Part shown: positions 4,364-27,383 of the stretch, in pieces
How the letters are laid out: the number at the start of each line of letters is the position of its first letter
Position numbering within the stretch: the stretch's first letter is position 1
Source: a virus
Virus record (IMG/VR): IMGVR_UViG_3300020703_000090
Location: 1 to 28,505 of that record
Reading direction: 5' to 3' (one strand)
DNA length: 28,505 bases
Program-made: the position numbers and the translations under genes
Notes under the pieces: generated by a model
What the model saw: only the letters and a program-made list of their open reading frames with translations
Database searches by the model: none
Told to the model about the DNA's origin: nothing

Positions 4364-4366
4364 CGG

Positions 4367-6470: not shown

Positions 6471-6488
6471 GGCATTCGGTACCGGTTA

Positions 6489-6944: not shown

Positions 6945-6966
6945 ATCTCAAAAGTTTCGAGTGCGC

Positions 6967-7006: not shown

Positions 7007-7020
7007 CGCTCCTCAGCTCT

Positions 7021-8160: not shown

Positions 8161-8191
8161 AACTCAATCTCCTTATAGGTTTCTGTTATCG

Positions 8192-10390: not shown

Positions 10391-10402
10391 TACCACTGAT
10401 AA

Positions 10403-11142: not shown

Positions 11143-12240
11143 TTAGTCATTAACATATTCTTCCATGCAATTGTAAGCATGATAGTTGATATCTCCACCA
11201 CCTCTTGCACTTGTATATGCTTTGAACGACTTACGCATCTCGACAAGAAACGACGCTGGATTCTTCTCTCTCAGTTTCCTGACATCTTCTTTAGTGCTTA
11301 AAATATTGAACATGCCTCCAATAGCGAGCCAAGCCGCACCAAAAGGTAAAGCTTGATCTATAGGAATAGAAAGCAGTTTACTAAAGAACATTGGCGCTGG
11401 AAAAGCCGTCAAAGAGACTCCAAACCATCCCTTTACATTTATTATATCGGCACTTTTCTTATACTGTTCTTGAGCTTTAATAAGCTCTTTAACTTTATCC
11501 ATCAAGGTCTCGATTTTTATATCATATGATTCTAACTGAATAAGCTCAGTTCTAAGATCATGCATACATGAACGGAATTGTGAAATTTCTTCCCTTCTTT
11601 TTTCACGAAATTTAAGGATTTTTTCGGCCGGGATTTCAGAAATATTTAAGGGTACTAATTCGCTAACAATCAAACCGAATAGCCCGAAGCTCTCTGCATT
11701 TTCATCTGCAAACTTATCGTCTCCAATACACATAATAAACTCATCTACATCACCGTCTATGGAAAAGTAATTTGTTCCGGTCCAAGCACTCCAATCGCTG
11801 GTGATGAGGGATAACTTATTTTTTTTTGCTATCTCAGTTGCCATGTAGAGCATAAATTGAGATGCTATAGCAGTCGGAACATATATCCAATTGTTATCCG
11901 TTGGATATCCTGCTTCGAGGAACAACTCCCTAACACGTTCATCTATTTTATTGCTGTGTAGCTTCATAATCATTTCTTCACCATCTTCTCTGTACATAAG
12001 AGCAGCTGCATTCCAATCTTTCGAAAGAAAGTCTTCTGACGCTTTCTTTGAATAATTCGCTGGATCAATCATTCTTCCGATAGACCCTTCTTCCAGCAGA
12101 GGAGCTAAGTCTTCAGAATCATCTGGTATTACGTTGTCCGGCACTATGCGATAAATATTATCATAAAACAAAGCCATCGCCTTAATCCAAGATGAATTAT
12201 GTAGGCCAATATGAGGGTAATAAAGTGCGTTTGATTGCAT
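11143..12240 (-). CDS. DUF6236-like protein with coiled coil and hydrophobic region
   Basis: A 365-residue protein starting MQSNALYYPHIGLHNSSWIK; the ALYYPHI opening is the hallmark I recall for DUF6236. The first ~200 residues look like a soluble alpha/beta domain (YDNIYRIVPDNVIP, then ASQFMLYMATEIAKK). Residues about 207-265 form a charged, heptad-like coiled coil. Residues 271-314 are hydrophobic (GWFGVSLTAFPAPMFFSKLL, then AAWLAIGGMFNIL) and may insert as one or two membrane segments. It lies on the same strand as the BREX operon, 228 nt downstream of brxL, and is more AT-rich, so it probably has its own promoter. No enzymatic motif is visible. A defence accessory role is suggested by the location only. 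Confidence 0.7.
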   Translation of the reverse strand: MQSNALYYPHIGLHNSSWIKAMALFYDNIYRIVPDNVIPDDSEDLAPLLEEGSIGRMIDPANYSKKASEDFLSKDWNAAALMYREDGEEMIMKLHSNKIDERVRELFLEAGYPTDNNWIYVPTAIASQFMLYMATEIAKKNKLSLITSDWSAWTGTNYFSIDGDVDEFIMCIGDDKFADENAESFGLFGLIVSELVPLNISEIPAEKILKFREKRREEISQFRSCMHDLRTELIQLESYDIKIETLMDKVKELIKAQEQYKKSADIINVKGWFGVSLTAFPAPMFFSKLLSIPIDQALPFGAAWLAIGGMFNILSTKEDVRKLREKNPASFLVEMRKSFKAYTSARGGGDINYHAYNCMEEYVND

Positions 12241-12468: not shown

Positions 12469-14577
12469 CTATGCACGAAAAATATCAACCTTTGTTTCAA
12501 GGCACTTCCTCAAACTGAGGTCGTTGGCGCCCACCTCATACCAGCCACCTGGCTTTTGATAAAAATCGAGACCTCGCCCAATCTTTATGACCCAGCCGTT
12601 ATCGATTCTGATTTCACGATCATGCATCTTGACGTTAAGTTGAACATCAAGCTCAACATCCAATTCAAGCAGACTCTGCTTGAGTTCATCCAGCTTTTCT
12701 GAAATTTCAGCTAACGGTGTATTGTCGTCATATCCCGTGATGAGGGTGATCTTTTTTACCGTATTTGATTTCACGACAGTTTCGCAAAACCTTACGAAGT
12801 TCTGTATCTGATGCGGCAAGCGCATGTAGGGATCTTCGATAACGATAGCCTTTGCGCCAAGTAAATAGGTGCCAATAATTGTCTCATAACTGTAACCAGT
12901 ATCTCCATAAAGGATTGTAAAGTGCTGCTCACTAAGCTCCACCGGATTTGGGACAATCACGGCAGGAACAGGAGGTGCAATCGATGTCGTTTTCGGTAAA
13001 GGCTCTACCTCTACTACAATAAGAGCTGGTTGTTTGGCTGGTTTTGGGTCGATAACTGAACCAGACTGATCATCCGATTTACTTAATCGGCGTCGGACTG
13101 GTTGTTGTGTAGCGTTGGCATTCTTCGATTCCGGACAGTAAACAATTATTTCCTCACCATTATTCTTGAAAAAAGAGAGGTTAATAAGAGCGAACTCATC
13201 ATCCGGCTTTCGTTTATTCATCTGTTCCTTAACACGGCGCCGGCATTCTGTGGCATAAGCGACGTACTCTTCAAATTCATCATCCGTCGGTGTCCCTGAC
13301 GGGTGCAGGATTTTCAAAAAAGCACAAATTGTTTTCTTGATGCCCTTTTCGTCGCGTCCTTCGATTGATTTACCAAGACGGACACGTTTGTTAACTTCCT
13401 CGTACCTGTTCGTGTGTTTGAACTGGTAGTGAAATGCTTCAGCCAAATAATCTGTGATGAACCCATAGCTGTTCGTCAAAAAATCACTACTATTTTTGGG
13501 CATTTCCCAACCTGGGATATAGGCTGCTATTCGATCCAATATGGCAAGATCAAATTCACTGGGCAGCGGTAAAAAAAGATCATGCTCGGTTGAATTGACC
13601 ACCTGCTGCACCGATTCATTAAAATTTCCGACAAAACTGAGGCTTGCATCGGCAATGACTTCGACACCACGTGAAAAACGGCCGTTAGCCATAAAATCTT
13701 TCATGATCTGCATAGTATCAGGATCGCGTACCTTGATGCCTCCAACTTCATCGAAAGCGACGGTATCCCAAAAACCAACAAGCCCCACCTTCCTACGCTG
13801 ATTGTTGTAAAACAGAGTTGCCTTAGTTGCTTGACCACCTGAAACCAATGTTGCATAGGGAGAAAACTCGCTGAAAAAATAGGACTTACCTGTCCCACGT
13901 GGCCCAAGCTCTATGTAATTGTAATTAGGCTCTACCAGGGCTGCAAGCCGTGCAATGAAGTGCATCTTCACCCTTTGTGAAAGCTTTGAGGGTTCTAACC
14001 CAACGGAGCGGATAATAACATCAATCCATTCATCCCGAGTAAAATCAGCGCGGCCATTTGCGTAGCGCTCGAAATCAAAGCGCGACAACTGGATTGGGCG
14101 CATATCTTCTATATAAAACGCATAATCATCTTCCTCAATGTCATTGTGCGAAAGCGTCACTTCAGCCCAGATGCCCCCCTCAAGAAGGCGATCGTTATCG
14201 CGGTAAAACTTCTCGCCAATTGCAATGCGCTGCGAATTGAAATTTTCCAGTGAAGCCCAGTGACGCTTTTCTTTCTCAACGTATCGGACATGAACTTTGT
14301 CGATAAAACGATGCTTCCCTTTGGTGGCAACCTTCGACTGTGCAGCATTTGCTTCATCTGGACGAACATAATTTTCCTGAAGCGTTGCCAGTACAGCCTC
14401 CATGCCCGCGTCCATCTCTGCAGGATCATCACTTGCACAAAATCGTGCAAGGAGAAACTCAAGTACAAACGTTGGAATGTTTGTGCCCTTTTTGATACGG
14501 TGAAGCAGATCTTTTCTTAACACCTTACCATCAAAGGCCGCAATCAGTTTATTGTCCAGCTCATTGATCTCATTCAT
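12469..14577 (-). CDS. brxL: BrxL, BREX AAA+ (Lon-related) protein with C-terminal MIT_C-like domain
   Basis: A 702-residue protein. The N-terminal ~130 residues match the DNA-contacting part of BrxL-type proteins (KVLRKDLLHRIKKGTNIPTF, then FIDKVHVRYVEKEKRHWASL). The AAA+ core has a Walker A at 225-232 (GPRGTGKS), a Walker B ending D276-E277 and the helical lid up to about 455. A proline-rich linker (about 485-545) joins a last domain, residues about 548-700, with HDREIRIDNGWVIKIGRGLD at 652-671 and VDIF near the end, matching the MIT C-terminal domain of eukaryotic MITD1. A Lon-type Ser-Lys protease domain is not seen. From the family, BrxL is a DNA-binding AAA+ ring that restricts phage and is dispensable for methylation. 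The ATG overlaps the pglZ stop (ATGA). Confidence 0.9.
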   Translation of the reverse strand: MNEINELDNKLIAAFDGKVLRKDLLHRIKKGTNIPTFVLEFLLARFCASDDPAEMDAGMEAVLATLQENYVRPDEANAAQSKVATKGKHRFIDKVHVRYVEKEKRHWASLENFNSQRIAIGEKFYRDNDRLLEGGIWAEVTLSHNDIEEDDYAFYIEDMRPIQLSRFDFERYANGRADFTRDEWIDVIIRSVGLEPSKLSQRVKMHFIARLAALVEPNYNYIELGPRGTGKSYFFSEFSPYATLVSGGQATKATLFYNNQRRKVGLVGFWDTVAFDEVGGIKVRDPDTMQIMKDFMANGRFSRGVEVIADASLSFVGNFNESVQQVVNSTEHDLFLPLPSEFDLAILDRIAAYIPGWEMPKNSSDFLTNSYGFITDYLAEAFHYQFKHTNRYEEVNKRVRLGKSIEGRDEKGIKKTICAFLKILHPSGTPTDDEFEEYVAYATECRRRVKEQMNKRKPDDEFALINLSFFKNNGEEIIVYCPESKNANATQQPVRRRLSKSDDQSGSVIDPKPAKQPALIVVEVEPLPKTTSIAPPVPAVIVPNPVELSEQHFTILYGDTGYSYETIIGTYLLGAKAIVIEDPYMRLPHQIQNFVRFCETVVKSNTVKKITLITGYDDNTPLAEISEKLDELKQSLLELDVELDVQLNVKMHDREIRIDNGWVIKIGRGLDFYQKPGGWYEVGANDLSLRKCLETKVDIFRA

Positions 14578-17114
14578 ACTGTATAATCCGTTTCCAGGTT
14601 AATACAACCATAACTTGCCAGTGTTGTAGGATTAAGTACCTTAACCGTAAACTTGCCCTCAAAATCCGGATCCATTCTTAGTGCGATTTGCTTCCGCTGA
14701 CCATGGACCAACATCACTGTGCGTGTTGCAGGATTCACTTCACCACAAGGTCGGGGTTCCCCGACGACATTCCCCTTGCTATCCTGAGCCTCAATCAACA
14801 CCTCAATACCAGGAACTTCAAATAAGTTCAAGGTATTGAGGCCGCCAGAAGTTAATTCCACATCAATAACAGGAATTCTTGTTGTGATACGCTTTGCCCC
14901 ATTCTTATAAAAAAGTTCAACATTTAGCTTTCGAACCTCTGCATGAACCACTGTATCAAGCCTCGCCACCAATACGGGCACCACTGCTTCAGCGAGTGAC
15001 GCTCCTCCATGAAAGTACAAATGACCTGATCGGTAAGGTGCCATGCTGCGAGGGAGTGCTACCTGTGCAAAATCCCCTCGTATACCAACTTTTTCTGCAC
15101 TAATGACGATACTATGGCTGTCTCCAGTACCACTTCCGAGCATCATGCGATCATGCGCATTGACTGGCCAGTTACCTTGCGGCTTAACACACACATCACC
15201 CGCTTCTGCATGAGCGTTAAGAAAAAAACCATGGTCAGTCACAATCACAGCTTCCTTGAATTTCATACTACTCAACTTGTGAAGAGCCCTACGAATCAGT
15301 TTGAGCGTACCGGGGATAAGGCCTATGGTTGTTTCTGGATTACTCTCCAGTTGGCTGTCGATTTCTGTTGAACGCAAAACCAAAAGATCGATAGTTTCAG
15401 CAATTTTTTGCTTACCACGCACAAAATCATTCAGCGCCATCGACTCAAAACGGTCACCGAGGTGCTTTTTCAAAACCTCCATCCGTTGATTAACATTGTT
15501 CACTGGCATACCGGCCAACTTCGGAACCAGGGAATTGTCTACCAATGAAAAGGTTAAATTATGACTCGCTCCAGGCAAGAGGCTTGCCATCCCTACCGGG
15601 GTGATGGTAGGCAATTGAGCATAGGCAGCGTGCAATTCCACAGGACCATCTTCGGCAAGTAGTTTTTCGAGTGCAACACCCAGCTCGTACCGTAACGCAT
15701 CAACCATCAGGTAAGCGACCTTACCTCCACGTTCCTTGAGCCGACTTGCAACCAAACTATCAAACACATCGGCATTAGCCATGCGTCCGGTCGGTGGCCA
15801 ACCTGAACTCTCTATATGTTTTATAAAAACACCCTGTACTTTTTCTGCAAGTCGACGATAACGGCCTCGGGCCTGATTAATAACTTCTTGCATGAAGTCA
15901 TGTTGTTCAGGAAAATCACCAACAGCTTGTTCGAACTCCCTTTGAAGACGGTCTACCTCCCGTAAACTTCCAAGATAAAAGTCAAGCAGATCAGCCTGTG
16001 AACGGGCATGATCTGGAAGTTGACGATCGTAATCATCACAAGCTTCCACTAAACTGAGCCCGGAACGAACCAACTCCCACTGCGCTACACTCTCTCCTTT
16101 GCCGAGCCAGACAGAACTCTTATAGCGAGTCAAAAGAGTTCGCGTCGTATCAGTATCATTGGATGTTATGCCTTTAATGGCGTTTCGCAAAAAGGTACGC
16201 TCTTCAAATGGAAAGGTATCCCTGACGCCCAAGTCGTCGATATCAGCGCACAGCTCCGCCATATTCAGTTCGGCTTCAATCGTCTCAGCCCGCTCAATAA
16301 ACGTAATACGCAACTTCTGGTCACTGCGTAATCTGTCACAAACGTCATCTATAATTGGTCGTGCTTCTATCGGGGCATGAGGCACTCCCTTCAGCGGGTT
16401 AGGCAATGCTCCCGGTAGATCAAAAACAAATTCACTGAACAACACATAGCGCCAAAGCTCATCAGCAACCGTTGACCACGTTTTACCGCGTGTTTTCAAG
16501 TGCAAGGATAGAGTCTTCTGCAAAAAATCTCGGGCTTCTTGCACCCAACCTTCTTGAGCTTTCAGTGCCTCTATCTGGAGTGAGGTAGGCGCCATCAATG
16601 CCACAAGTATTTCTCGGCCCGACTCAACTTTCAATGTTGCACGCAGTTGCGGCCAACTCACACCACCACCAATAGCATCAATCACGGCAAACGAAGGCTC
16701 CATAGCCGTTCGAGCAAACAACTGCCGAATCTCCGTGGCGTGATCAGGCCTGGCACGTAAGCATAAGCTGAGGTATTCGTCACCATCATCTTGAGGAAAG
16801 AGAGCGCCACACCCTGCATAGAGTGCAAAAGGGTCTACCTGTTTCTGCTCATCCGTTTCTGAACGTTTAGCTGGCACATAGATCAATAATGCTTCGACTT
16901 GTGAATTCGACTGGCCAACATCCCTGAGTGCAAACAACGCGGCCTCCCGGCTTTCGATACTGCTTTCACCTGCATCAATGACGCAAACCTTTTCGCTGGC
17001 CAGGTCGAAGCATTGCTGGCGATAACGTTTTTCAGCGTCGTACACAACCAAACAGCCTGCCTGTTTCAAGCGCGGTCGCAGGACACTCTCTCGGATAAAT
17101 TCAGCAATGCTCAT
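14574..17114 (-). CDS. pglZ: PglZ, BREX alkaline-phosphatase-superfamily protein
   Basis: An 846-residue protein, close to the usual length in type 1 systems. The N-terminal ~430 residues are helical with no obvious motif. The PglZ domain follows: metal-site D472 in YLMVDALRYELG, the likely nucleophile T505 in TITPVGMASLLPG, D627-H628 in VIVTDHGFF, and H702 in YFHGGASLAEAVVPVLV. All metal-binding positions expected for the superfamily are present, so the enzyme should be active as a nuclease or phosphatase. A beta-rich C-terminal domain occupies about 715-846. The ATG overlaps the pglX stop by 4 nt, and the stop overlaps the brxL start by 4 nt, so translation is coupled on both sides. In known systems PglZ is needed for both methylation and phage exclusion. 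Confidence 0.94.
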   Translation of the reverse strand: MSIAEFIRESVLRPRLKQAGCLVVYDAEKRYRQQCFDLASEKVCVIDAGESSIESREAALFALRDVGQSNSQVEALLIYVPAKRSETDEQKQVDPFALYAGCGALFPQDDGDEYLSLCLRARPDHATEIRQLFARTAMEPSFAVIDAIGGGVSWPQLRATLKVESGREILVALMAPTSLQIEALKAQEGWVQEARDFLQKTLSLHLKTRGKTWSTVADELWRYVLFSEFVFDLPGALPNPLKGVPHAPIEARPIIDDVCDRLRSDQKLRITFIERAETIEAELNMAELCADIDDLGVRDTFPFEERTFLRNAIKGITSNDTDTTRTLLTRYKSSVWLGKGESVAQWELVRSGLSLVEACDDYDRQLPDHARSQADLLDFYLGSLREVDRLQREFEQAVGDFPEQHDFMQEVINQARGRYRRLAEKVQGVFIKHIESSGWPPTGRMANADVFDSLVASRLKERGGKVAYLMVDALRYELGVALEKLLAEDGPVELHAAYAQLPTITPVGMASLLPGASHNLTFSLVDNSLVPKLAGMPVNNVNQRMEVLKKHLGDRFESMALNDFVRGKQKIAETIDLLVLRSTEIDSQLESNPETTIGLIPGTLKLIRRALHKLSSMKFKEAVIVTDHGFFLNAHAEAGDVCVKPQGNWPVNAHDRMMLGSGTGDSHSIVISAEKVGIRGDFAQVALPRSMAPYRSGHLYFHGGASLAEAVVPVLVARLDTVVHAEVRKLNVELFYKNGAKRITTRIPVIDVELTSGGLNTLNLFEVPGIEVLIEAQDSKGNVVGEPRPCGEVNPATRTVMLVHGQRKQIALRMDPDFEGKFTVKVLNPTTLASYGCINLETDYTV

Positions 17115-20100
17115 TTATCTACTCCAGCATTTTTTTTATTGCGCACTTTTTTCACTTTACCCACAGGTTCGATATAAAGTTCTTCCAAACCATGAGCTAT
17201 GGCAAGGGATTTGTCGGTCTTGCATTTCAGGCGCACGCGTTCCGGCCAGTAGTTTATTGCCAAATGAGCCCAGTCGTAATCACCCTTTTCCAACTTTTCC
17301 CAGGTCTCTTTCAGTACCTTCTGCCAGGGCTTGTGCCTAAACAAAGGCCATAGAGGTGCTGCACTAATTTGCACACCGTCATCAAGGTTGGGTTTGTAGG
17401 TGGGGGCGAGTTTGAGGAGTGTGTCACGCAGTTCAATCAACTCGAGTTCGAAGGCTTGCAATGATTCGAATTGCTTTTCGTCTTTGCTCGTGCGAGCAGA
17501 GCCTTTGTTGCGTAACGCCGTCACATCATCACCGACTTGCTTCAGCTTGGGCTCAACAAAGTCGTTGGTGGCAGTATATAGCGTCTGGCTAGTGAGGCTG
17601 GGGTAATAGACCCACAGCGTGTAAAGACCTGAGGTCGTACCAAATGGCCAGTAAATAGGTGCTTGCTTGCGACCTTTTGAATATTTGGCTAAGTGATCCG
17701 AAAAGAACCCAACGTGATTGCGCAAGTATTCGATTTCACTTCCTACGCCCAAAAGCGATAACATTTGAACCTCTACGCCTTCTGAATTGTGTCCAAAAAT
17801 ACTCGACATACAGCTCTGTATACGACTTTCAAGATCAACCTCGGAGAGAAAGGAAACTGTATTCTCGTGAGTCACCCTCGACATTGCTGGGGACTGGCTT
17901 GGAATTGGCAATCTCGGATCAAATGATGCTTCGACTGGCTGGCCACTAAACGTTGCATTAATACTCCATCGTAGAAAAGTAGCTCCAACCAGGTAGCTAA
18001 AAAGTTCCGCAGCGGCTTCTCTACCCCCTCCCACCTGTTGCAGAAAGCCATACTGTTCATTAAGCTCTCCGCCACCGAGATATTTGTCAAGCTGATGCGA
18101 TATACAATCTCGATCTATTTTGCTGATCCCGTATAGAGCTTCTACAGCGACAGCGAGATCGCGCTCTAATGCTTTAATCTGAAAACCTATCTGTTGAGTA
18201 AAAGCTAAGCGAACATCAAAATATTTTGCTCCCGCCTCAACAGCAGAAGCTAACAAGCCAGAAAAGTATCCAGACAACTCATTCAAATGCTCAATTTTCA
18301 ATCGCAGTTGAAATCCTGCCCTTGAGATATTTGCAACTGTAACATGAGTAGGCAAATTTGGTAATGGAGCTGGAATGGGTAACAGGTTCACGTACCCTGC
18401 ATGCTTATGCTGACCGCAATACAGATTTAGTATTACGGAAGTCAATGGCGCATTGAGGACACCAAGGTAGTACCAGATGTCGTCAAATGATTCTGGAAGT
18501 ACAAAAAGACCCTCAACGGTGAAAACATGGCCAACTGGAACTACGTGAGCATCCAAAACCTCCCCTCGTTTGCCGTATCCGATTCCCGGAAGATGCTGAT
18601 ATTCAGAATTGCTCCAACGTGTAGATGGGTGGTGTTTAAGGAATAGGCCATCTTCATTCCACCGAGCAATTTCCACTGAAGGCATTCCGAATCTTGAAAA
18701 GGGCCCACCATTATACATGCGCGTCCAACGACCATTTACATCAATTGAATGCGGGTCAACTTCCCACCAAAGCCTACCATACCAGTCCATTTTGATTGCA
18801 TGCCCCTGAAGGGCGCGCGCACCTGAAGCTTGCAATGGTGGAAGGGACGAAAAGAAATTAAGCACAAAGTTTGGTATGTCATATGCTATTGAAGCATGAG
18901 GGATTCTGTTGAATATTGCAGGGGCCAGCCAGCGAATGTCTACCTGGTGCCGGATTGCTCCAATAAGTCGGACATCCTTGTTGTTGTCATTGCGGCAGTC
19001 AATAAATCCCTGTGTTGAGTCAATATCTCCATCACAAGAAAAGACTGCGGCAGTGACCTCGACATTGGCGGCATCAAGAACGCCCCATCCTAAATCTGCG
19101 AGCGGTCCAATCGTCGCCTCCCCCAAGGCACAGCTTTGACGGAATGATTCATAGCTGGATTTAATCAGGATTGTTTTGTCGGTCACACAACCAATGCATG
19201 CCCCGCTGCGCAAAAGCATCTTCATTCTGACAATGAATGCTGCAGCAAGGTTCTTGCACCAATCAGGTGTTGCGTAATCCAGATAATCTACCGTGCTGGA
19301 AGATGTGTCCCCAAAAGGCGGATTCATCACCACGACATCAAATACCTCGCTGCATAGGTCAATAAGTCGCAATCCTTGCAAAGCGTCTTGCGCAAACAGG
19401 CGTCCTTGATATGTTGATTTTGCTGCGGTAGCAAAATCTGTTAAAGCTTCACGCAACCGAATTTCTGCTTTTTCCCATATACCCTTGTCTTGCGCAGTGA
19501 AGAGGTCTTCCTCTTTACCTCCTCCATAAACCTCACGAATTAACTTTGGCAACTCTCGCTCCACCTGGAGCAGCACACCCAATTCCGGCAATCCTTTCAA
19601 CAGTTGCAGCGTCTTTTCAAACAGCACGGCATCACGTTTATCCATAGATGCTGTGAGTTGCTGACGGAGTTCCAATTCAGCGGGAGGGGCTACAGCAGCA
19701 ACCACATGCCCCACACCAATCAATGGCCGATCTTTGGCTTTCACCCCTGTGTCGTGCCAGGCTCGCTGTGCCCGCAACCAAAGTGCCAAAGAGGCAATCT
19801 GCACGGCACGGGGATCGATATCCACCCCATAAATATTGTGTTCGATAATCAAACGGGGTACGTCACGGAGGTATTCACCCTCGTCAGTGTAGGTTAGGCT
19901 CAGAGGTTGAAAGCCTGCCTGTGGCGAAGTAGATAAATCCAATGCGCCTGGGCCATATTGCTGTTCCCAGATCCAAGCTTCTCGGTATATCTCGATAAAG
20001 AGGTCAAACGCATAAAGACCAAAGTGCATGGAACCACATGCAGGATCAAGTAATTTCAGCGTGCGTGGATCGCGAAGTTTGGTCCCTACCACGGGTGTTT

Positions 20101-20920
20101 CGTCAGGTTTCACAAGCAGATATTGGCAACGATCACGCAACGTCGTTTTTCCTCCCGTCGCGTTGAACCACAACCTGCCCAAGGTATTATCCACCAAAAA
20201 CTCTACGACATAGCGTGGGGTAAAAAACTGGTTCCGCACGGCCAATTCGCGGCTATTGCGAGGTGCCGGCGAGGCATCCCGCATAGATTTACGCTCTTCT
20301 TTTGAGTTGAAATATTGATAGATCCAGCCAATGGTTTCATCTTCACTCCATAGTGGCTCGATATCAGCACTGTTAATCAGGTTGAGCAATGGCAAAAGCG
20401 CCGACTCACGCGGAAACAAGCGACCTTGGGGTGAAAATCGGTAAAAGAGTCCCGGAAGCTCTTGAGCCAGTTCGTCGAAAACGCTGAATAGGTAGATGCG
20501 GTAAGCTTCGGCTGTTTCACCAAGGCCAGTGCCCGATAACCGGCCATACAACTGAAACCCCTTGGCCTGAAAGCCACTGCCAACCGACTCGACAAGGAGT
20601 CCGCGAGCTTCGGCCATCCGTAGAGCGGCTAAACGATTGAGGACGGTGAAGGCCTGTTCACGGACAATTCGATCAAGAGCTTGTTTTCCATCCATATCCC
20701 CACTTGCGCAGTAGTGCGATAAGGTGTCGCGCAAGATGCGGGCGGTTTCACGCTGTGCATCATTAAGATGCCGCAAGTTCTCAAGCCCAGTTATAGATCC
20801 TGAGATCGGGTCTAATCCATAGTCGTTCTGGAGTTGCCGGATAAACTCCTCTTGCAGCACTTTACGTGCATCGTTGACAAAACGTTGAAGTCGATTTCTT
20901 GTTGATTGATCAAAGGCCAT
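17111..20920 (-). CDS. pglX: PglX, BREX adenine-specific DNA methyltransferase
   Basis: A 1269-residue N6-adenine methyltransferase. The family's entry motif QFFTPRYVVEFLVDNTL is at about 231-247. The S-adenosylmethionine motif is D292-PACGS, followed by NIYGVDIDPRAVQIA at about 362-376, and the catalytic NPPF is at 533-536. The remaining ~700 residues hold the target-recognition and spacer regions, for example around 690-850 with many aromatic residues. In BREX it marks a non-palindromic host sequence on one strand, giving self/non-self discrimination. The frame is uninterrupted, with no phase-variable homopolymer noted. It is separated from brxC by 78 nt, the widest gap within the operon, and overlaps pglZ. 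Confidence 0.95.
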   Translation of the reverse strand: MAFDQSTRNRLQRFVNDARKVLQEEFIRQLQNDYGLDPISGSITGLENLRHLNDAQRETARILRDTLSHYCASGDMDGKQALDRIVREQAFTVLNRLAALRMAEARGLLVESVGSGFQAKGFQLYGRLSGTGLGETAEAYRIYLFSVFDELAQELPGLFYRFSPQGRLFPRESALLPLLNLINSADIEPLWSEDETIGWIYQYFNSKEERKSMRDASPAPRNSRELAVRNQFFTPRYVVEFLVDNTLGRLWFNATGGKTTLRDRCQYLLVKPDETPVVGTKLRDPRTLKLLDPACGSMHFGLYAFDLFIEIYREAWIWEQQYGPGALDLSTSPQAGFQPLSLTYTDEGEYLRDVPRLIIEHNIYGVDIDPRAVQIASLALWLRAQRAWHDTGVKAKDRPLIGVGHVVAAVAPPAELELRQQLTASMDKRDAVLFEKTLQLLKGLPELGVLLQVERELPKLIREVYGGGKEEDLFTAQDKGIWEKAEIRLREALTDFATAAKSTYQGRLFAQDALQGLRLIDLCSEVFDVVVMNPPFGDTSSSTVDYLDYATPDWCKNLAAAFIVRMKMLLRSGACIGCVTDKTILIKSSYESFRQSCALGEATIGPLADLGWGVLDAANVEVTAAVFSCDGDIDSTQGFIDCRNDNNKDVRLIGAIRHQVDIRWLAPAIFNRIPHASIAYDIPNFVLNFFSSLPPLQASGARALQGHAIKMDWYGRLWWEVDPHSIDVNGRWTRMYNGGPFSRFGMPSVEIARWNEDGLFLKHHPSTRWSNSEYQHLPGIGYGKRGEVLDAHVVPVGHVFTVEGLFVLPESFDDIWYYLGVLNAPLTSVILNLYCGQHKHAGYVNLLPIPAPLPNLPTHVTVANISRAGFQLRLKIEHLNELSGYFSGLLASAVEAGAKYFDVRLAFTQQIGFQIKALERDLAVAVEALYGISKIDRDCISHQLDKYLGGGELNEQYGFLQQVGGGREAAAELFSYLVGATFLRWSINATFSGQPVEASFDPRLPIPSQSPAMSRVTHENTVSFLSEVDLESRIQSCMSSIFGHNSEGVEVQMLSLLGVGSEIEYLRNHVGFFSDHLAKYSKGRKQAPIYWPFGTTSGLYTLWVYYPSLTSQTLYTATNDFVEPKLKQVGDDVTALRNKGSARTSKDEKQFESLQAFELELIELRDTLLKLAPTYKPNLDDGVQISAAPLWPLFRHKPWQKVLKETWEKLEKGDYDWAHLAINYWPERVRLKCKTDKSLAIAHGLEELYIEPVGKVKKVRNKKNAGVDK

Positions 20921-20998
20921 TTTGACTCATTTTATTGTCATCTCGACATGGATGGAGCTGAAGTATCGGACACTTATCGAACAGTTACTCTTCAAAAC

Positions 20999-23900
20999 TC
21001 ATTGAGGCGCTTCAGTAATAAATGCAAAGGTAATCTCAAGCTCTGCATAGAGAGCGAACTCTGCCTTAATCTCGTTAAGTTGCTGGATGATTAAGTCGAT
21101 ATCAGAGACCGTCTGAATTTTTACTGGTACCGCGATGGACCTCGATAGCTTTGCCGCTTCTTTAGTGCTTTTCTTGGCACGCTCTTCATCCACTTTTTGA
21201 CGAAGACGCTCACGACCCTGACGCTGAATAGATCGCTTAAGCTCTTCCATAGTGCTATTGATATCGAAATCCCGGGCCAGTAGCTTCTTGAGTCCAGCCA
21301 AGTCTGGTTTGACTTCGAGCATCAAGTCATCTATCCGAGTTACAGCGATCCCTTGTTCTTCTTGAGTGAGTTCCTTCCATTCAGGAAGGCGCTGCAAGTC
21401 TTCAATGCAAGCCGTCAACCGTTGTGTTTGCTGGTTGGCTAATTTAGTGACCGCATCGGTTACAAGACTTTTTATACGTGTAAGCTGTGACTGAAAGTCG
21501 GCACTGTATGTATAAAAATCTTCTCGTCCTAAACGATCCACCAAAAGTGTCAACTCTTCGCTTGACTCATGGCGCAATTCACTAGGCACGCCAGTATCGG
21601 GCAGTACATCAATATCGCTACGATGAGCCTGGAGATTACGTAACGTATCGTCAAGCCCGTTGTCAAGCACCCGCTTCACGTCGTGGGCCCACTTGAGATT
21701 GTCGAAGATAGCGGAGGTTTCGGCCCCCAATCGCTGCGGCGCATCCGAAGCATCGGTAAACAAGAGATCGGCAATATCTTGGTTCAGGGTGCAAACTCGA
21801 TCACTGCCTGCCAACCCAAGGCCGCTGAGCTTCTCCGCAAGAGAGCCATAGTCATGCTGAAAACGCGGAAAATTCTTTAATGCTGCTTTACCGATATCCT
21901 GTTCAAGCGGAAATACGGTATCCCCGATTAACTCTGTAAGCCGCTCTGCTGCCCGGCTGAGCGTTTCTATTGAGGGGCGCTCATCGCGTAAGGCAACACC
22001 AATCGGCTTGAATGAATTATTGGTTTTCAGGGCATCAATTGCTTGCTGGCCAGCAACGGTGACCTCTCTTCCTGAAACTTTGAGTTTGATTTCACCTGCC
22101 ATCAACATGGCTGCGATAATGTAGCGTGTAGTGTCCGGCGACCAACCAAACGGATCATTACTGAAGTCATCTATAAGCCTTTTTCCATCAACAGTTCCGT
22201 GTTTGTCGATGTAATCACGAATACTGATCATCGCTTTATGATCAGTAGTAAAGGAAGCCCTTCCGGCAATCGTCTGCACCAGTCCGAGTGGATCGAGGCT
22301 GCTACCGATAGCAGCAGGGTTCGCTACTTTCAATAATTTTTCGGCCGTATCAGTGCCAGCTCGAACCGGGGCTTCAGCGTAGCGATCAAAAACCTGACCG
22401 GCAACATCCATGAGTAGCTTTTTATGCGCTTCAAGCAAATCACCATCCAAAGCGGCTATTGCTGTAGCCTGCCCTCTGAAAACAAAAGAGCCTGCCTGTA
22501 ACGTCTGCTTGATCTTGCTTTTTAGCTGACTGGCAAGTTTGGTCGCACGATCAACCTGACCTGTACAGTAATCCTTGACCTCTTGGTCTGGTTCATTGCG
22601 ATGAAGTTCCGCAATACGCTGGCAACGATAAATTTCATTTGCCATATCATCAAGTTCATTATTGCGCCTAGCCAGTAAACCAATGATATTACGATTTGAG
22701 CGACTGCGTGAGTCATCAAGCATACGATTTTTTGCTGCTTCGTAATCACCTGTATCGACAAATTCAACAATACTCTGTACTGGATTTTGATCCCCTGCCA
22801 AAGGAGTGATGGTGCTACCCGATTGCACTTTTAATCCAGTGGTAACAACCATCGTGGTGTGGAAATTGACGCGTGGCAACGGATCAAAAGATTCGCGTAG
22901 GGCATCATTAGATATACGCTTCAAATCTACGGTACGCAATGCTAAATCCCCACGCTCTTGTTCGATGTCGCGCAGTTTCTCACTGAGGAAAACAAGATTC
23001 CCCCCTTTCTCGCCAAGGGGCACATACACATCACCCAACAACTCATCAACAGCTTTGCGTACCGTTTCGAGCATTGAGGGTGCGGTGATGGAGGGGTGCA
23101 TCAGACTTGCAACATTCTGGAGTGAGACCGGTAAGTTTGAAAGTATCTGCAACACGGCGATAGACTTTGCTATGTCCTGATGGAGCGGCGAGTCGAAGAA
23201 GCGATTTTGAACTTTGCCAACAGCTTGATGGATAGAGGTAAATGCGCGTCGAATATCCTTTTCTAACTCATCGTACAGGGTAACCGTCGTAGCAAGCCAG
23301 CCTACAGGTTGATCCGCCATCGCTATAGAACCACCTTCACCCTTCAGTACATCCTGAACTACCTTGATTGCGGAACGCAACCCAATACCGCCAGTAGATT
23401 TTGCCAAGGCTCCCAGCAAATGCAACAAGATATCAAAATGGGCCGGGAGGAATGGGTAGAGGTTGATGAAGCTCGTTTTGCTAAAATCGGCGTCATAGTA
23501 CTTGGCGTCTTGCAATTTGGTGTTGTGCCTGAGTGCCTGACCATGAGCATCGAATAGCTTGCCAAGCTCTGCTTCTCCCTGGAGTGATTTGCCAAGCAAA
23601 CGGCGATAACAGATCTCTTTAATATCGCTCGATTCCAGGTCTATTTGAATCGGAAACCGATCTTTCAGTTTGTAGAGCTTGTCCGAGTTCAATGCCGCCC
23701 GCGGGTCATCTTCGGTGAGGGTCTGCTGTGCTGTGGAAATAATCCAGGCCTTGCCATCACCAATCCGTTTGAGGTTTTTAGCCAGACCGTCAAGATTAAG
23801 AATCAAATTATCACGGTCAGCAACATATTGGCCAACTTCATCAATGATAAAAATGATATGTTGCTTGCCACTTTTTTCGCGTACAATATCAATCATCTCC

Positions 23901-24631
23901 TGAACACGCTGGTTTTCGAACTGGAAAAAACCGTCCGTGCGGGAAGAAAATGACTTTGTGTCCGGGAAGAGTGCCGGGTACATTTCATGAGCGATGTTGG
24001 GAATCAGCCCGTCAATAACAAGAGGGTTATTCTGAACTCGATCCCATGTTGCTCCCGGCATGATAGTTGAAACACGCTCGTGTAGTTCAGCTGTTCGACC
24101 CTCTTTTTCGATCATGCGTTCGAAGGCGGCAACCTTAAGGTTTCTGGAGTATCCAGCCCACTGGAGCACCTTAAAGTAGAGTACCGTAGAGACATCTTCC
24201 ATCGTTGCCCCAGCAAGCATTTCACTTGCAAGATCAAGCATGACGACAGCCGCCGGGAATTGTTTTGCGACCGTATTGAGAAGCGCCTTTGTCTGCGGCT
24301 TATTGAGCCGATCATAGAGATAATTGATGAACGGAGTGCCGTTAATGGTACATTTATCATCAAAAGCCAAGCCGAGATACTTGGTAAATGAGCTTTTACC
24401 TGAACCGTAAAATCCTGATACCCAGACACCTACCTCATTCTCTCCACCCGTCTCCATCGCAAGTTGCATACGATCAAGTAACTTGCGAAACTGCTCTTCA
24501 ATACTTTCGGTAACCACGTATTCTGAGATCTCAGCCCTTAGTCTCTCTTCTTGAGATACGCTATAGGTGATAACCTTCTCTATATTTCGGTAGATGTCCT
24601 TACTTGGGTCGAAGAGTGATCGGATGGTCAT
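20999..24631 (-). CDS. brxC: BrxC, large BREX P-loop ATPase
   Basis: A 1210-residue protein that opens MTIRSLFDPSKDIYRNIEKV, the standard BrxC start. Walker A is at about 73-81 (GFYGSGKSS) and Walker B ends D264-E265 (IIFIIDEVGQY). The middle and C-terminal parts are helical, with several charged coiled-coil stretches toward the end (about residues 1080-1160, many Arg, Lys and Glu). BrxC is required for both methylation and defence in known systems and probably powers assembly or DNA scanning by the complex. It follows brxB by 20 nt. Its length is typical, and no lesion is seen. Confidence 0.95.
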   Translation of the reverse strand: MTIRSLFDPSKDIYRNIEKVITYSVSQEERLRAEISEYVVTESIEEQFRKLLDRMQLAMETGGENEVGVWVSGFYGSGKSSFTKYLGLAFDDKCTINGTPFINYLYDRLNKPQTKALLNTVAKQFPAAVVMLDLASEMLAGATMEDVSTVLYFKVLQWAGYSRNLKVAAFERMIEKEGRTAELHERVSTIMPGATWDRVQNNPLVIDGLIPNIAHEMYPALFPDTKSFSSRTDGFFQFENQRVQEMIDIVREKSGKQHIIFIIDEVGQYVADRDNLILNLDGLAKNLKRIGDGKAWIISTAQQTLTEDDPRAALNSDKLYKLKDRFPIQIDLESSDIKEICYRRLLGKSLQGEAELGKLFDAHGQALRHNTKLQDAKYYDADFSKTSFINLYPFLPAHFDILLHLLGALAKSTGGIGLRSAIKVVQDVLKGEGGSIAMADQPVGWLATTVTLYDELEKDIRRAFTSIHQAVGKVQNRFFDSPLHQDIAKSIAVLQILSNLPVSLQNVASLMHPSITAPSMLETVRKAVDELLGDVYVPLGEKGGNLVFLSEKLRDIEQERGDLALRTVDLKRISNDALRESFDPLPRVNFHTTMVVTTGLKVQSGSTITPLAGDQNPVQSIVEFVDTGDYEAAKNRMLDDSRSRSNRNIIGLLARRNNELDDMANEIYRCQRIAELHRNEPDQEVKDYCTGQVDRATKLASQLKSKIKQTLQAGSFVFRGQATAIAALDGDLLEAHKKLLMDVAGQVFDRYAEAPVRAGTDTAEKLLKVANPAAIGSSLDPLGLVQTIAGRASFTTDHKAMISIRDYIDKHGTVDGKRLIDDFSNDPFGWSPDTTRYIIAAMLMAGEIKLKVSGREVTVAGQQAIDALKTNNSFKPIGVALRDERPSIETLSRAAERLTELIGDTVFPLEQDIGKAALKNFPRFQHDYGSLAEKLSGLGLAGSDRVCTLNQDIADLLFTDASDAPQRLGAETSAIFDNLKWAHDVKRVLDNGLDDTLRNLQAHRSDIDVLPDTGVPSELRHESSEELTLLVDRLGREDFYTYSADFQSQLTRIKSLVTDAVTKLANQQTQRLTACIEDLQRLPEWKELTQEEQGIAVTRIDDLMLEVKPDLAGLKKLLARDFDINSTMEELKRSIQRQGRERLRQKVDEERAKKSTKEAAKLSRSIAVPVKIQTVSDIDLIIQQLNEIKAEFALYAELEITFAFITEAPQ

Positions 24632-24651
24632 GGTTTGATTCAGTTATCAGT

Positions 24652-25227
24652 TTAGCCGCCAACGTGGACGGAACGGTAATTGCCATCTTCAGGGTAAAAG
24701 CCAAGAAATTTTAAACGGGTCTTTCCTGTCCGAATGCCAGGGTAGAGAAAAATTGTCGACACATGGAACTGGCCATGAAGTTGGCTTTCAATCGCACCTA
24801 TGCGCATAAATGGGTGAAGTGCCTCAAGGTCAGTGACTAAAAGTAAAGCATTTTTCTGTCCTTCAAGCTGTTGCAGCGAATGTTCCAGACGCTTTAGTAA
24901 CCCATTATCCGAAGATAAAATATCCGCCAATGCGTTGTTGGTTCGCGGCCAATCTAAGGGGGCTAGCTTGTCTTCCGTCACACAGAGCGACCAAAAGGGA
25001 TCTTCCTTAAGCAGAGTCCATATCTGTTCTGCAATGGAAAACGTGTGGACGTCCCAACCTTCCTGATGAAGCTTTGATAACCATGCTGGCGTCTGCCGTT
25101 TTACTTCAAGTATCTGATCAGGAGAGAATACGAGGTAGTAAATAGGCTCAAAACTCGCATGACCGAGTTCTCGCCCAGATCGAATGCGCTCGCGCAGTTC
25201 GTCAAAATCAGCTTTGAGAGAGGACAT
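24652..25227 (-). CDS. brxB: BrxB (DUF1788)
   Basis: A 191-residue protein matching DUF1788: FDELRERIRSGRELGHASFE at about 8-27, then YYLVFSPDQILEVKRQTPAW, VHTFSIAEQIW near 55-65, ALLLVTDLEALHPFMRIGAI near 128-147 and FLYPGIRTGKTRLKFLGFYP near 160-180. Its biochemical role is not established; it is needed for BREX function in model systems. The gene overlaps the end of brxA by 20 nt and precedes brxC by 20 nt, so it is tightly bound into the operon. Confidence 0.92.
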   Translation of the reverse strand: MSSLKADFDELRERIRSGRELGHASFEPIYYLVFSPDQILEVKRQTPAWLSKLHQEGWDVHTFSIAEQIWTLLKEDPFWSLCVTEDKLAPLDWPRTNNALADILSSDNGLLKRLEHSLQQLEGQKNALLLVTDLEALHPFMRIGAIESQLHGQFHVSTIFLYPGIRTGKTRLKFLGFYPEDGNYRSVHVGG

Positions 25228-25996
25228 CGCAGAGGGTCTCCATGTCTTGTAGTTTCCAACTAATCCTGATCACATCACCGGCTGCCTGAATAATGAGGCT
25301 GCCCTTCAAAGAGAGTTTTTTCATCTCGGCAAGGACATCTTCTCGCGCTAAACCGAATAACTCCCAATTTTCGTTCGTAAGCAGGGCATTATCACCAACC
25401 CCGCTAAAGTGGAGTTCATACGCGAGGTATGCTACTACAACCGATGAGATTCGAAACGGCAGAATGCTTCGACTTATACGTTGCCCACGCTCCAGTAGCC
25501 CGTAGTCAGCGCAACAACCAGTCAGATAAGCAGAGACATGCTGCACCGTGGATTCAGACCACCGCTTCACACTCTTCCCGTCGTCGATACCTCGCTCAAC
25601 AAATGCCCGAGCATCCTCATTGGTGATCTGCGTATAGCCACCTGCATACCGAGTCCAATAAACGTGACGTACGAAATCGCCAAGGATTGGGTTCGCTCGG
25701 CATGTAAAAACGAGCATGAGTTGGGTCAGGTCAGCAGAACAAATATTTGAAGCCAACAACTTAAGATGTGTGGCGGGGACTCCCTCTGCAACAAGGTAGC
25801 GAGGTGCGAAGCATTCAAAGACAATGTTTCGCAGCCGCCGTGCTGTGACTGCTGGAAATCGACCAGATTCTAATGCCACCTGATACAACTGAATTGACGT
25901 CATACCGAGTGACCACAAGTCAAGTAGTGTCTTGGTTTCATTGACGAGTCCAAGGCCTGCTCCCAATTTAGTTGTGTAGGGTTTGTTTTCTGACAC
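25208..25996 (-). CDS. brxA: BrxA (DUF1819)
   Basis: A 262-residue protein of the DUF1819 family, which in characterised examples is a small DNA-binding protein required for BREX. The N-terminal pattern YTTKLGAGLGLVNETKTLLDLW, then ALESGRFPAVTARRLRNIVFECFAPRYL, is typical. The middle region (FVRHVYWTRYAGG, about 110-122) and the end (SLIIQAAGDVIRISWK) are also family-like. It is somewhat longer than the ~200 residues usual for BrxA, mainly in the C-terminal part. It begins 2 nt after the stop of the brxE-like gene, which implies a shared transcript and coupled translation. Confidence 0.88.
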   Translation of the reverse strand: MSENKPYTTKLGAGLGLVNETKTLLDLWSLGMTSIQLYQVALESGRFPAVTARRLRNIVFECFAPRYLVAEGVPATHLKLLASNICSADLTQLMLVFTCRANPILGDFVRHVYWTRYAGGYTQITNEDARAFVERGIDDGKSVKRWSESTVQHVSAYLTGCCADYGLLERGQRISRSILPFRISSVVVAYLAYELHFSGVGDNALLTNENWELFGLAREDVLAEMKKLSLKGSLIIQAAGDVIRISWKLQDMETLCDVLSQS

Positions 25997-25998
25997 GA

Positions 25999-26550
25999 TT
26001 AATTTACTAAATATGGATACGTTCTAATGTCCTGCAAGAACGCTGACAAGTAAGTGCCTGCTATTACCGCCAAGGTATCATGAGACTTGATATTCTTAAT
26101 GTTGCCCAACGCTATTGGGCCCTCACCAGCAAGTATTTCAGTTGAGGGCATGCTGTTCAATGCGTCCAACGCTGCATCTTTGCTTTTGGTCACTTGACCA
26201 GTAAACTCTTCACCGACGGTGCTTTGCATAAGATTGTGAAGATCCTGCTCGATCTCTTCTGGCAACCGAAACAAGTGATAGCTGCCAACGCTTAAATGTT
26301 CATCATGCAAACGTCGGGCGGCTTCAAGGACACCGTGATATTGAGCTAACTGAGAAGTTTTCGTAAAAACCGGCTCAAGAAAAAGTCTGCTTGATGTTTC
26401 ATAAAAAGCTGTTGGCCACCAGGCAAAATGAGAGCGCTCTCCAAGAAAGCCGATCAAGAGCCTCATTCGCAGCAACGTTGGTAAATACGATGCAATCATT
26501 TCATTATTTGTTGAACTCCTTTTTAGGAAGACCCTTTCCTTTGACTGCAA
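25999..26550 (-). CDS. brxE: BrxE-like protein, first gene of the BREX operon
   Basis: A 183-residue helical protein. I recognise a BrxE pattern: LLRMRLLIGFLGERSHFAWWPT (about 26-47), FLEPVFTKTSQLAQYHGVLEAARRLHDE (about 56-83), then VGSYHLFRLPEEIEQDLHNLM. BrxE is a small protein of unknown activity described as the first gene of type 6 BREX. The longest frame starts with TTG at 26550 without a ribosome site. The in-frame ATG at 26499 (residue 18) begins MIASYLPTLLRMRLLIG and fits the family start; a GGAG site lies 16 nt before it, which is long. I therefore think 26499 is the likelier start. The name rests on recall of the motif and operon position. Confidence 0.65.
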   Translation of the reverse strand: MQSKERVFLKRSSTNNEMIASYLPTLLRMRLLIGFLGERSHFAWWPTAFYETSSRLFLEPVFTKTSQLAQYHGVLEAARRLHDEHLSVGSYHLFRLPEEIEQDLHNLMQSTVGEEFTGQVTKSKDAALDALNSMPSTEILAGEGPIALGNIKNIKSHDTLAVIAGTYLSAFLQDIRTYPYLVN

Positions 26551-26864
26551 GATTATCCGGATATTTCACCCAGCGATTCTCAGTATTTCTTTTTTATCGA
26601 CAGCCGCAAAACATTGTCTAATATGAAGATAATAAATGATAAGCCTATTCCGAAAAATCTCTATTTTTTCTCTTTTGTTTTTTATTCCAAATGATGATTT
26701 AAAATGCAGACTCGCTTTTGAATAACAATTCATGCCCAAAATTAATAATAAGTCCGTCTGAGGGTATAAAACCTTTTCAACCTCCAAAGTATTCCTAGTA
26801 GCACGATTTCTCCGTGTCAAAAAACCTTCCTTTTTTAAGACACATTCCGCCTCCCCAGTTTCCA
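26551..26864. other. AT-rich upstream region of the BREX operon
   Basis: About 310 bases that should contain the BREX promoter (leftward). Neither strand holds a convincing gene; the 115-codon minus-strand frame here is discussed among rejected items. A/T runs are dense, and no clear operator or -35/-10 pair can be named. No gene for a BrxR-type WYL regulator, often found just upstream of BREX operons, is present between the operon and the umuD remnant. Confidence 0.5.
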
Positions 26865-26866
26865 CC

Positions 26867-26974
26867 TGCTTTCCTTTGCTTGCCAATGCCGAATACAAGC
26901 CCATCAAAATCACCGAAGAAAATCATTTTCTTGTCTGGTGAATGCTTGCCTATATTGTCCACAAGCCGAGATAA
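26867..26974 (+). pseudogene. umuD: C-terminal remnant of umuD
   Basis: The plus strand encodes CFPLLANAEYKPIKITEE, then NHFLVW, a TGA (26939-26941), then MLAYIVHKPR and a TAA at 26972-26974. This matches the end of UmuD-like proteins (NxxYxPI, followed by W/FGVVTxVIHK). The TGA sits where a conserved glycine is expected; GGA to TGA is a single change. The rest of umuD, about 100 codons, is absent: upstream DNA is AT-rich and unrelated. The 24-nt spacer to the umuC fragment, including GGAGG, has the normal umuD-umuC layout. Confidence 0.75.
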
Positions 26975-26997: not shown

Positions 26998-27069
26998 ATG
27001 TTCGCCCTTGTCGACTGCAATAACTTCTTCAACGCCCATATTGTTCAATATAATCTAAAAGATTTATGA
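26998..27069 (+). pseudogene. umuC: 5' fragment of umuC, now a 23-codon leader
   Basis: This ATG is preceded 8 nt upstream by a strong GGAGG site (26985-26989), in the normal position after umuD. It encodes MFALVDCNNFF, identical at DNA level to the first 26 bases of the full umuC at 27425, then diverges (NAHIVQYNLKDL) and stops at TGA 27067-27069. That stop overlaps the ATG of the inserted 105-residue gene as ATGA. The fragment can thus act as a translated leader for the inserted gene. Confidence 0.75.
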
Positions 27070-27383
27070 AAGTAACTGCTTGGAATAATGGCTCTTACAG
27101 TACAACGGGAGCAGGCTATGGCTTTAAGATATCCTGTAAAGAAGATCGTGATAAGTATTTCAAAAGAGAGTTCTCACCGATTTGTATTGTTCTGCCAGGA
27201 CAGCAAAATCCAATCAAAGTTAATATTGATAAAGATTCGTTTTGGAAGAATTGTAGGGAATTAATTTGTAAAGAAATTGGTCTTTGGCTTATTTCCCAAG
27301 GCCATTCGAAATGGACAAAAAACAGTCCACCAGTTTTTGAATTAGAATTTAAGGATTTTACCTCCTTCAAATTATTACCATAA
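27066..27383 (+). CDS. Small uncharacterised protein inserted at the start of umuC
   Basis: A 105-residue soluble protein: MKVTAWNNGSYSTTGAGYGF, then KEDRDKYFKREFSPICIVLPG, then SFWKNCRELICKEIGLWLIS and a C-terminal PPVFELEFKD. I recall similar small proteins (AWNNG, GAGYG, RDxYF, FW-CxEL-KEIG-WL) widely scattered in bacteria with no known function. The well-formed frame and family-like pattern argue for a functional gene. It is AT-rich relative to umuC, and its ATG overlaps the stop of the umuC fragment, so it should be translated by coupling from the umuC ribosome site. It is not related to UmuC or UmuD by sequence. Confidence 0.7.
   Translation: MKVTAWNNGSYSTTGAGYGFKISCKEDRDKYFKREFSPICIVLPGQQNPIKVNIDKDSFWKNCRELICKEIGLWLISQGHSKWTKNSPPVFELEFKDFTSFKLLP

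What the first reader, a model, noticed from the sequence alone, without database searches (positions are those of the whole stretch)
12469..26550. Intact BREX operon combining a BrxE-like first gene with the type 1 core and BrxL
The order brxE-like, brxA, brxB, brxC, pglX, pglZ, brxL is seen directly. In the published scheme brxE belongs to type 6 with brxD and brxHI, whereas brxL as terminal effector belongs to types 1 and 4. This locus has brxE but brxL instead of brxD/brxHI, so it looks like an intermediate or hybrid subtype. All frames are open and closely spaced, so it is probably functional.
Basis: partly seen in the sequence, partly recalled or inferred. Interest (0 to 1): 0.65.

Follow-up and report, generated by a model that had tools for sequence, protein, structure and literature searches.

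The report
BrxE-bearing BREX operon with BrxL
This is an intact bacterial anti-phage operon whose unusual mix of genes is not a one-off hybrid but the standard layout of a widespread BREX lineage that the published naming scheme does not describe.

Summary
The operon is real and intact: brxE-A-B-C-pglX-pglZ-brxL, minus strand. The first gene is a genuine BrxE-family protein (BrxE_fam 165 bits, cut-off 40; BREX-6 BrxE 31, cut-off 80); its start is more likely ATG 26499 than TTG 26550.

The "hybrid" reading fails in its literal sense. In 80 related loci from many phyla, brxE lies upstream of brxA in 73; six of the other seven are cut by contig ends. BrxL was found in 43, a BrxD/BrxHI pair in none. 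BrxC and PglZ trees place the window in a deep lineage (EL) apart from classical type 1 and nearer type 6 (SH-aLRT 95-99, long branches). All 17 classical loci examined lack BrxE. So BrxE is not type-6-specific: it accompanies BrxL-PLD (here), BrxL-Lon, or BrxD/BrxHI (type 6).

BrxE is closely coupled to brxA (77 of 79 within 25 nt); its confident model (pLDDT 93.6) matches no solved or viral structure. I read it as a small core subunit acting with BrxA (inferred). NCBI already labels the family; my literature searches found no description of this lineage.

The parts
   Evidence: NF033447 165.8 bits (cut-off 40), NF033448 31.5 bits (cut-off 80); start choice; AlphaFold pLDDT 93.6
25208..25996 (-). 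brxA, long form (262 aa): BrxA fold 3-216 plus extra C-terminal winged helix ~183-262
   Evidence: PF08849 88.5 bits; model pLDDT 94.3; VIA-align Z 16.6 to BrxA 7zge, Z 13.6 to SspB over 2-262
24652..25227 (-). brxB (191 aa)
   Evidence: PF08747 36.5 bits, cut-off 26.8; PADLOC BrxB 369 bits
20999..24631 (-). brxC AAA+ ATPase (1210 aa), P-loop GFYGSGKSSF
   Evidence: NF033441 841.7 bits, cut-off 400
17111..20920 (-). pglX/brxX adenine methyltransferase, single gene (1269 aa), NPPF motif
   Evidence: NF033452 BREX-1 PglX 612.5 bits (cut-off 500); BREX-6 PglX 338.6 (cut-off 900)
14574..17114 (-). pglZ (846 aa)
   Evidence: PF08665 45.3 bits; NCBIfam best is BREX-6 PglZ 154 bits, under its cut-off 400; PDB 9nv3 PglZ E 1.6e-7
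12469..14577 (-). brxL (702 aa): BrxL_N, MCM-like AAA+ and C-terminal PLD/HKD-type (MIT_C) domain, HxRx4D motif HDREIRID
   Evidence: PF20442, PF13337, PF16565 all over cut-off; BrxL 8emc E 4e-124 over 5-474; C-terminal domain vs MITD1

Best explanation
It is an intact phage-defence operon of a distinct, old BREX lineage (called EL here) whose constant gene set is brxE-A-B-C-pglX-pglZ-brxL. By analogy with characterised type 1 BREX (inferred), PglX marks host DNA by adenine methylation at a short site. BrxA, B, C and PglZ form the sensing and targeting complex on unmarked DNA. BrxL, an AAA+ ring with a PLD/HKD-type C-terminal domain, plus PglZ, act as effectors. BrxE is a small core subunit, made together with BrxA and most likely working with it as an adaptor or scaffold in the complex (inferred). 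It is kept whichever motor or effector is used: BrxL-PLD, BrxL-Lon, or BrxD/BrxHI in type 6.
For: Gene identities and intact frames. brxE upstream of brxA in 73 of 80 related loci; 60 of 60 BrxE proteins tested match BrxE_fam. BrxL in 40 of 40 loci whose held DNA goes past pglZ, 25 of 25 full-length ones of the PLD type, and 3 more when whole records of five further loci were searched. 5 of 5 plasmid loci carry both genes, in Gammaproteobacteria, Bacteroidota and haloarchaea. EL forms one lineage in PglZ (46 rows, SH-aLRT 99) and BrxC (31 rows, 100) trees, grouping with type 6 at 95-99. brxE-brxA spacing within 25 nt in 77 of 79, median -4. BrxE distances track the other five proteins, rho 0.72-0.79 over 39 loci, 0 of 300 permutations as high. 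EL and type 6 BrxE are homologous: hhalign probability 92, E 5e-7, and type 6 BrxE also passes BrxE_fam.
Against: No experiment was done; defence, methylation and the role of BrxE are all inferred. BrxE's distances follow the others less closely (0.72-0.79) than those follow each other (0.82-0.95), so it could be more accessory. The scan was seeded with BrxE-positive BrxC proteins, so 73 of 80 is not an unbiased rate. Two haloarchaeal BrxE+BrxL loci fall on the type 1 side of the trees with weak support. L041 has a truncated brxB and no brxE, and L057 lacks pglZ and brxL in its whole record.
Confidence: 0.72

Rival explanations
1. A recent hybrid: a type 1 operon that picked up a type 6 brxE (or a type 6 operon that swapped BrxD/BrxHI for brxL).
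For: Mixed label by the published scheme; PglX scores best as BREX-1 while PglZ scores best as BREX-6.
Against: Same gene set in loci down to 38% BrxC identity across many phyla; BrxC and PglZ trees agree on one lineage; BrxE of EL is well apart from type 6 BrxE (31 bits against the BREX-6 model, cut-off 80); BrxE co-varies with the other proteins.
Confidence: 0.05
2. BrxE is a regulator of the operon (first gene, like the WYL regulator beside some type 1 loci) rather than part of the defence complex.
For: It is the first gene; no other regulator was recognised upstream: ORF 26566-26913 (PADLOC, NCBIfam) and ORF 27066-27383 (Pfam) match no family.
Against: The confident model has no winged-helix or other known DNA-binding match; coupled to brxA rather than divergently placed; kept across effector types.
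Confidence: 0.17
3. BrxE is an enzyme (for example a nucleic-acid or nucleotide hydrolase) using its invariant or near-invariant E, H, D, R and Y residues.
For: Alignment A2 has invariant L19, W27, E84, Y150, P162 and near-invariant E21, H65, D66, H75, R78.
Against: No match to any enzyme fold; residue geometry could not be inspected; BrxE is the most divergent of six compared proteins (36% mean identity).
Confidence: 0.13
4. It is simply classical type 1 BREX, with BrxE an optional accessory gene.
For: PglX passes the BREX-1 model and the six type 1 core genes are all present; Rakesh & Krishnan fold types 5 and 6 into type 1.
Against: 0 of 17 classical loci have BrxE, and the EL lineage is separate in both trees.
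Confidence: 0.12

Closest known systems
BREX type 6 (brxE-A-B-C-pglX-pglZ-brxD-brxHI), e.g. Pseudanabaena plasmid pPg_02 (L149)
   Same: brxE as first gene, long BrxA, gene order, BrxC and PglZ nearest in the trees
   Different: BrxD and BrxHI in place of BrxL; the window's BrxE, PglX and PglZ fall below the BREX-6 cut-offs
Classical BREX type 1 (brxA-B-C-pglX-pglZ-brxL), e.g. E. fergusonii pEFER (L150)
   Same: Six core genes in the same order with BrxL; PglX passes the BREX-1 model
   Different: No brxE; BrxA mostly short (about 200-220 aa); separate lineage in BrxC and PglZ trees
BrxL with C-terminal HKD/HRD nuclease-like domain (Rakesh & Krishnan 2026, PMC12839542)
   Same: PLD-type C-terminal domain with HxRx4D
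   Different: Here it is fixed (25 of 25 full-length EL BrxL), not one of several options
NCBIfam NF033447 'BrxE family protein'
   Same: 60 of 60 tested proteins match; NCBI already names the gene in the plasmid records
   Different: The model names the protein; no operon type goes with it in the outputs seen

Membership tests
BrxE family (NF033447) | Score over the curated cut-off of 40 bits | tested here: met
   165.8 bits
BREX type 6 | BrxE of the BREX-6 equivalog (NF033448, cut-off 80) | tested here: not met
   31.5 bits
BREX type 6 | brxD and brxHI in the operon | tested here: not met
   brxL follows pglZ; no BrxD/BrxHI hit in the window with profiles from L149 and L151
BREX type 6 | PglZ and PglX over the BREX-6 cut-offs | tested here: not met
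   154 of 400 and 339 of 900 bits
BREX type 1 | brxA, brxB, brxC, pglX, pglZ, brxL in order | tested here: met
BREX type 1 | PglZ of a BREX-1 model (TIGR02687 type A or NF033450 type B) | tested here: not met
   93.9 of 270 and 59 of 400 bits
BREX type 1 | PglX over the BREX-1 cut-off | tested here: met
   612.5 against 500 bits
BREX type 1 | Core proteins group with classical type 1 in trees | tested here: not met
   long branches, so moderate weight
BrxL-HKD variant | BrxL AAA+ core with PLD-type C-terminal domain and HxRx4D | tested here: met
BREX (function) | Phage restriction and site-specific host methylation | not testable with these tools
   needs experiment

The most novel reading that the evidence does not exclude
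BrxE marks a major old branch of BREX that includes the EL lineage and type 6. Within it the motor/effector slot has been exchanged (BrxL-PLD, BrxL-Lon, or BrxD-BrxHI) while BrxE, a fold without match among solved structures, stays as an obligatory subunit paired with a long BrxA. A side possibility: the PLD-type domain of human MITD1 has its nearest bacterial relatives in this lineage's BrxL.
Probability: 0.4. Interest if true: 0.65.

Novelty: new variant of a known kind. Interest (0 to 1): 0.5.

Why it matters
BREX subtypes are named by gene content, with BrxE taken as a mark of type 6. Here BrxE is constant in a widespread lineage that uses BrxL, so subtype calls based on BrxE are unsafe; the PADLOC BrxE model matches only 24 of 60 of these proteins at E 0.01. 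It also turns BrxE from a rare oddity into a candidate core protein without a known fold, and makes a clear test possible: delete brxE from a BrxL-type operon and see whether methylation, restriction or both fail.

Tried and rejected
Hybrid by recent recombination: rejected on the trees and on recurrence. BrxE as a chance or false call: rejected. BrxE hidden in classical loci: hmmsearch --max of two BrxE profiles on 17 type 1 loci plus one type 5 locus gave nothing above 6.8 bits; room upstream of brxA was short in four of them (483-809 nt).

A function for BrxE from its fold: Foldseek against PDB gave no match with E <= 0.001 (best E 3.9), VIA-align of the 17 chains offered gave none with Z 2 or more, BFVD none. 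PDB sequences and Pfam gave nothing usable. This does not prove a new fold.

Unbiased rate: in 394 genomes of the same phylum BrxE_fam passes its cut-off in 3, Pfam BrxA in 42, BREX-6 BrxE in 0. The sample is heavy in the window's own genus. The fourth BrxE_fam genome (G348, 23.8 bits, inside a 936-aa frame) showed no BREX gene in the stretch fetched (L013) and I treat it as a false hit.

Loci without brxE (7 of 80): L022, L029, L043, L070 and L093 are cut by the contig end before brxE; L042 has only 214 nt before brxA; L041 has a truncated brxB joined to signalling genes (real loss or misassembly). Loci where pglZ was not seen: 30 of 80, most too short. Five long ones were followed up: L034, L038 and L085 have pglZ and brxL beyond the held DNA on what I take, from the coordinates, to be the same contigs; L080's contig seems to give only a weak PglZ match (21.9 bits) and no brxL there; L057 has neither in its record.

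The profiles were iterated on the same loci, which is circular; searches are the independent check (59 of the 73 relatives after removal of near copies, plus the window). Trees are 'quick' with long branches; the type 5 locus (L143) and the haloarchaeal rows are poorly placed. The AU test does not reject all BrxE-bearing rows as one side (p 0.188), which is not proof.

The founding paper (Goldfarb 2015) is not held; its scheme is taken from PMC12839542 and from recall.

Full report
WHAT IS THERE. The window holds seven adjacent minus-strand genes from 26550 to 12469. Family libraries name them BrxE family, BrxA, BrxB, BrxC, PglX, PglZ and BrxL. Each of the six core proteins has one PADLOC model matched almost end to end at 369 to 2026 bits, so close relatives of this set were already in that database. 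Frames are intact and spacing is tight, with 4-nt overlaps at X-Z and Z-L (coordinates). The BREX stretch equals the held genome base for base.

THE FIRST GENE. BrxE_fam (NF033447) gives 165 bits against a cut-off of 40; the BREX-6 BrxE equivalog (NF033448) gives 31 against 80. True type 6 BrxE proteins (L149, L151, L152) pass both models, so BrxE_fam unites the two groups. hhalign of 60 EL BrxE against 3 type 6 BrxE aligns 162 columns, probability 92, E 5e-7. The start is probably ATG 26499, because relatives begin at the matching methionine.

HOW COMMON IS BrxE WITH BrxL. tblastn of BrxE on 72,556 plasmid records found 5 records. All 5 have brxE, brxA, brxB, brxC, pglZ and brxL in that order: Thioflavicoccus, two Hymenobacter (one broken by many frameshifts), Halobaculum and Natronosalvus. 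A genome-contig scan with a BrxC alignment of the window and four of these loci kept the best 80 of at least 277 relatives. They span Pseudomonadota, Chloroflexota, Cyanobacteriota, Bacteroidota, Thermodesulfobacteriota, Verrucomicrobiota, Planctomycetota, Acidobacteriota, Spirochaetota and others. brxE is upstream of brxA in 73 of 80; six of the seven others are cut by the contig end or nearly so, and one (L041) has a broken brxB. BrxL was seen in 40 loci; 10 more end inside pglZ; 30 do not show pglZ in the held DNA. Following up five long ones of those 30 added three with BrxL, one unresolved (L080) and one without PglZ or BrxL in its record (L057). All 25 full-length BrxL proteins have the PLD-type C-terminal domain, none the Lon type. 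No BrxD/BrxHI pair was found; one weak BrxHI-like hit (36 bits) lies far upstream in L051.

CONTROLS. In 394 genomes of the window's phylum BrxE_fam passes in 3, BrxA (PF08849) in 42. Of 20 stretches fetched around those BrxA hits and the plasmid pEFER, 17 classical loci have no BrxE: 13 of the short-BrxA kind and 4 with long BrxA and a PglZ of about 750 aa. The other four fetched stretches were a contig end of the window's own genome (L129), another short contig end (L130), a BrxE-lineage locus cut by its contig end (L142) and a type 5 locus (L143). Three type 6 loci have BrxE, long BrxA, BrxD and BrxHI and no BrxL.

TREES. PglZ (69 rows) and BrxC (54 rows; 28 rows) agree. The window lies in a deep lineage of BrxE+BrxL loci (SH-aLRT 99 in PglZ, 100 in BrxC). 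This lineage, the looser members L012 (both proteins) and L142 (BrxC) and type 6 group together at 95 (PglZ), 95 and 99 (BrxC), apart from classical type 1. Haloarchaeal BrxE+BrxL loci (L008, L009) sit on the type 1 side with weak support. The AU test does not reject all BrxE-bearing rows as one side (p 0.188). The EL label needs 3 changes in each of the two larger trees against a shuffled mean of 16-18. For one search I gave 54 of 103 BrxC rows, thinning near copies.

WHO GOES WITH BrxE. BrxE occurs with BrxL-PLD (EL), with BrxL-Lon (L008, L009, L012) and with BrxD/BrxHI (type 6). brxE and brxA are spaced within 25 nt in 77 of 79 loci, median -4, the pattern expected of translational coupling. 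BrxE pairwise distances follow those of the other five proteins (rho 0.72-0.79, 39 loci), less tightly than those follow each other (0.82-0.95). BrxA in 70 EL loci is 258-270 aa. The window's BrxA model (pLDDT 94.3) matches BrxA 7zge over 3-216 (Z 16.6, rmsd 3.0, 196 aligned) and SspB over 2-262 (Z 13.6, rmsd 4.4, 248 aligned), with a further winged helix at about 183-262. This looks like the tripartite BrxA described by Rakesh & Krishnan 2026. Long BrxA also occurs without BrxE (L144-L147), so the pairing is one-way.

WHAT BrxE MIGHT DO. The model is confident (pLDDT 93.6, pTM 0.89) and mostly helical. Nothing in PDB or BFVD matches at E <= 0.001. Conserved residues include E21, W27, W28, H65, D66, H75, R78, E84, Y150, P162. 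Coupling to brxA, constancy across effector types and the absence of a known enzyme or DNA-binding fold make a structural subunit acting with BrxA the best guess, about 55-60%; regulator and enzyme are the rivals. Shown: presence, spacing, co-inheritance. Inferred: everything about action.

WHAT IS KNOWN. A search for 'BrxE' with 'BREX' found 3 papers: PMC12839542 (abstract, section 12, section 15 and passages read), PMC9716671 and PMC12926258 (passages read). PMC12839542 retells the founding study as having BrxE 'exclusively in Type-6' and mentions BrxE once. Further searches ('BrxE family'; type 6 with brxHI and brxL; new subtype; BrxL with HKD; brxE or defence island; listings seen, with passages of PMC10117892 and PMC10164562 read) brought no description of a BrxE-BrxL lineage. 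The library lacks most subscription papers and Goldfarb 2015, so this is no proof of absence. NCBI annotators evidently met the family, since their model exists and the plasmid records carry the name. I therefore rate it a new variant of a known kind: the parts are known; the lineage and its constancy appear undescribed.

Noticed in passing
12469-12912 (-), BrxL C-terminal domain: This domain matches human MITD1 (PDB 2ymb, 4a5z) at 127 bits, E 5e-36; a Chloroflexota EL BrxL (L035:22202-22651) gives 131 bits and a classical type 1 BrxL (L139:15375-15824) only 73. MITD1 has N where the window has the D of HxRx4D. The human domain may share ancestry with this BREX lineage; recalled: MITD1's domain binds membranes, a caution for calling the BrxL domain a nuclease.
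   Followed up: partly
L016-L095, L006-L009, L011, L012 and the window: PglX is split into two genes (methyltransferase about 630 aa and specificity part about 650 aa) in 26 loci and single in 37, of 87 examined (the rest too incomplete); in 20 of the 26 the two open frames overlap, like HsdM and HsdS.
   Followed up: partly
5-8953 (-): Prophage head and packaging genes: portal, large terminase, holin-like, major head protein, scaffolding protein.
   Followed up: partly
9763-10257 (+), repeats 9850-10417: A small open frame made of repeated units ending in a proline-rich 'WVPPP' stretch; the DNA repeats run on past its stop. No PHROGs match.
   Followed up: no
10601-10852 (-) and 11143-12240 (-): N-terminal fragment of a serine recombinase, and a DUF6236 protein (PF19749 42.8 bits) directly downstream of brxL.
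   Followed up: no
26998-27026 and 27426-27454 (+): A 29-nt copy of the 5' end of a umuC-like gene lies 428 nt upstream of the gene itself (27426 onwards), with a 105-aa orphan frame between; it may mark where the BREX island joined.
   Followed up: partly
own genome G000: C10:371065-371598, C1:44157-44690, C44:281-811: Pieces of further BREX-like genes near contig ends: a short classical BrxA, an 848-aa PglZ and a PglZ fragment; no second BrxC over the cut-off.
   Followed up: partly
PADLOC model PDLC02495 against alignment A2: The PADLOC BrxE model matches only 24 of 60 EL BrxE proteins at E 0.01, so loci like this are easily typed as plain type 1.
   Followed up: yes
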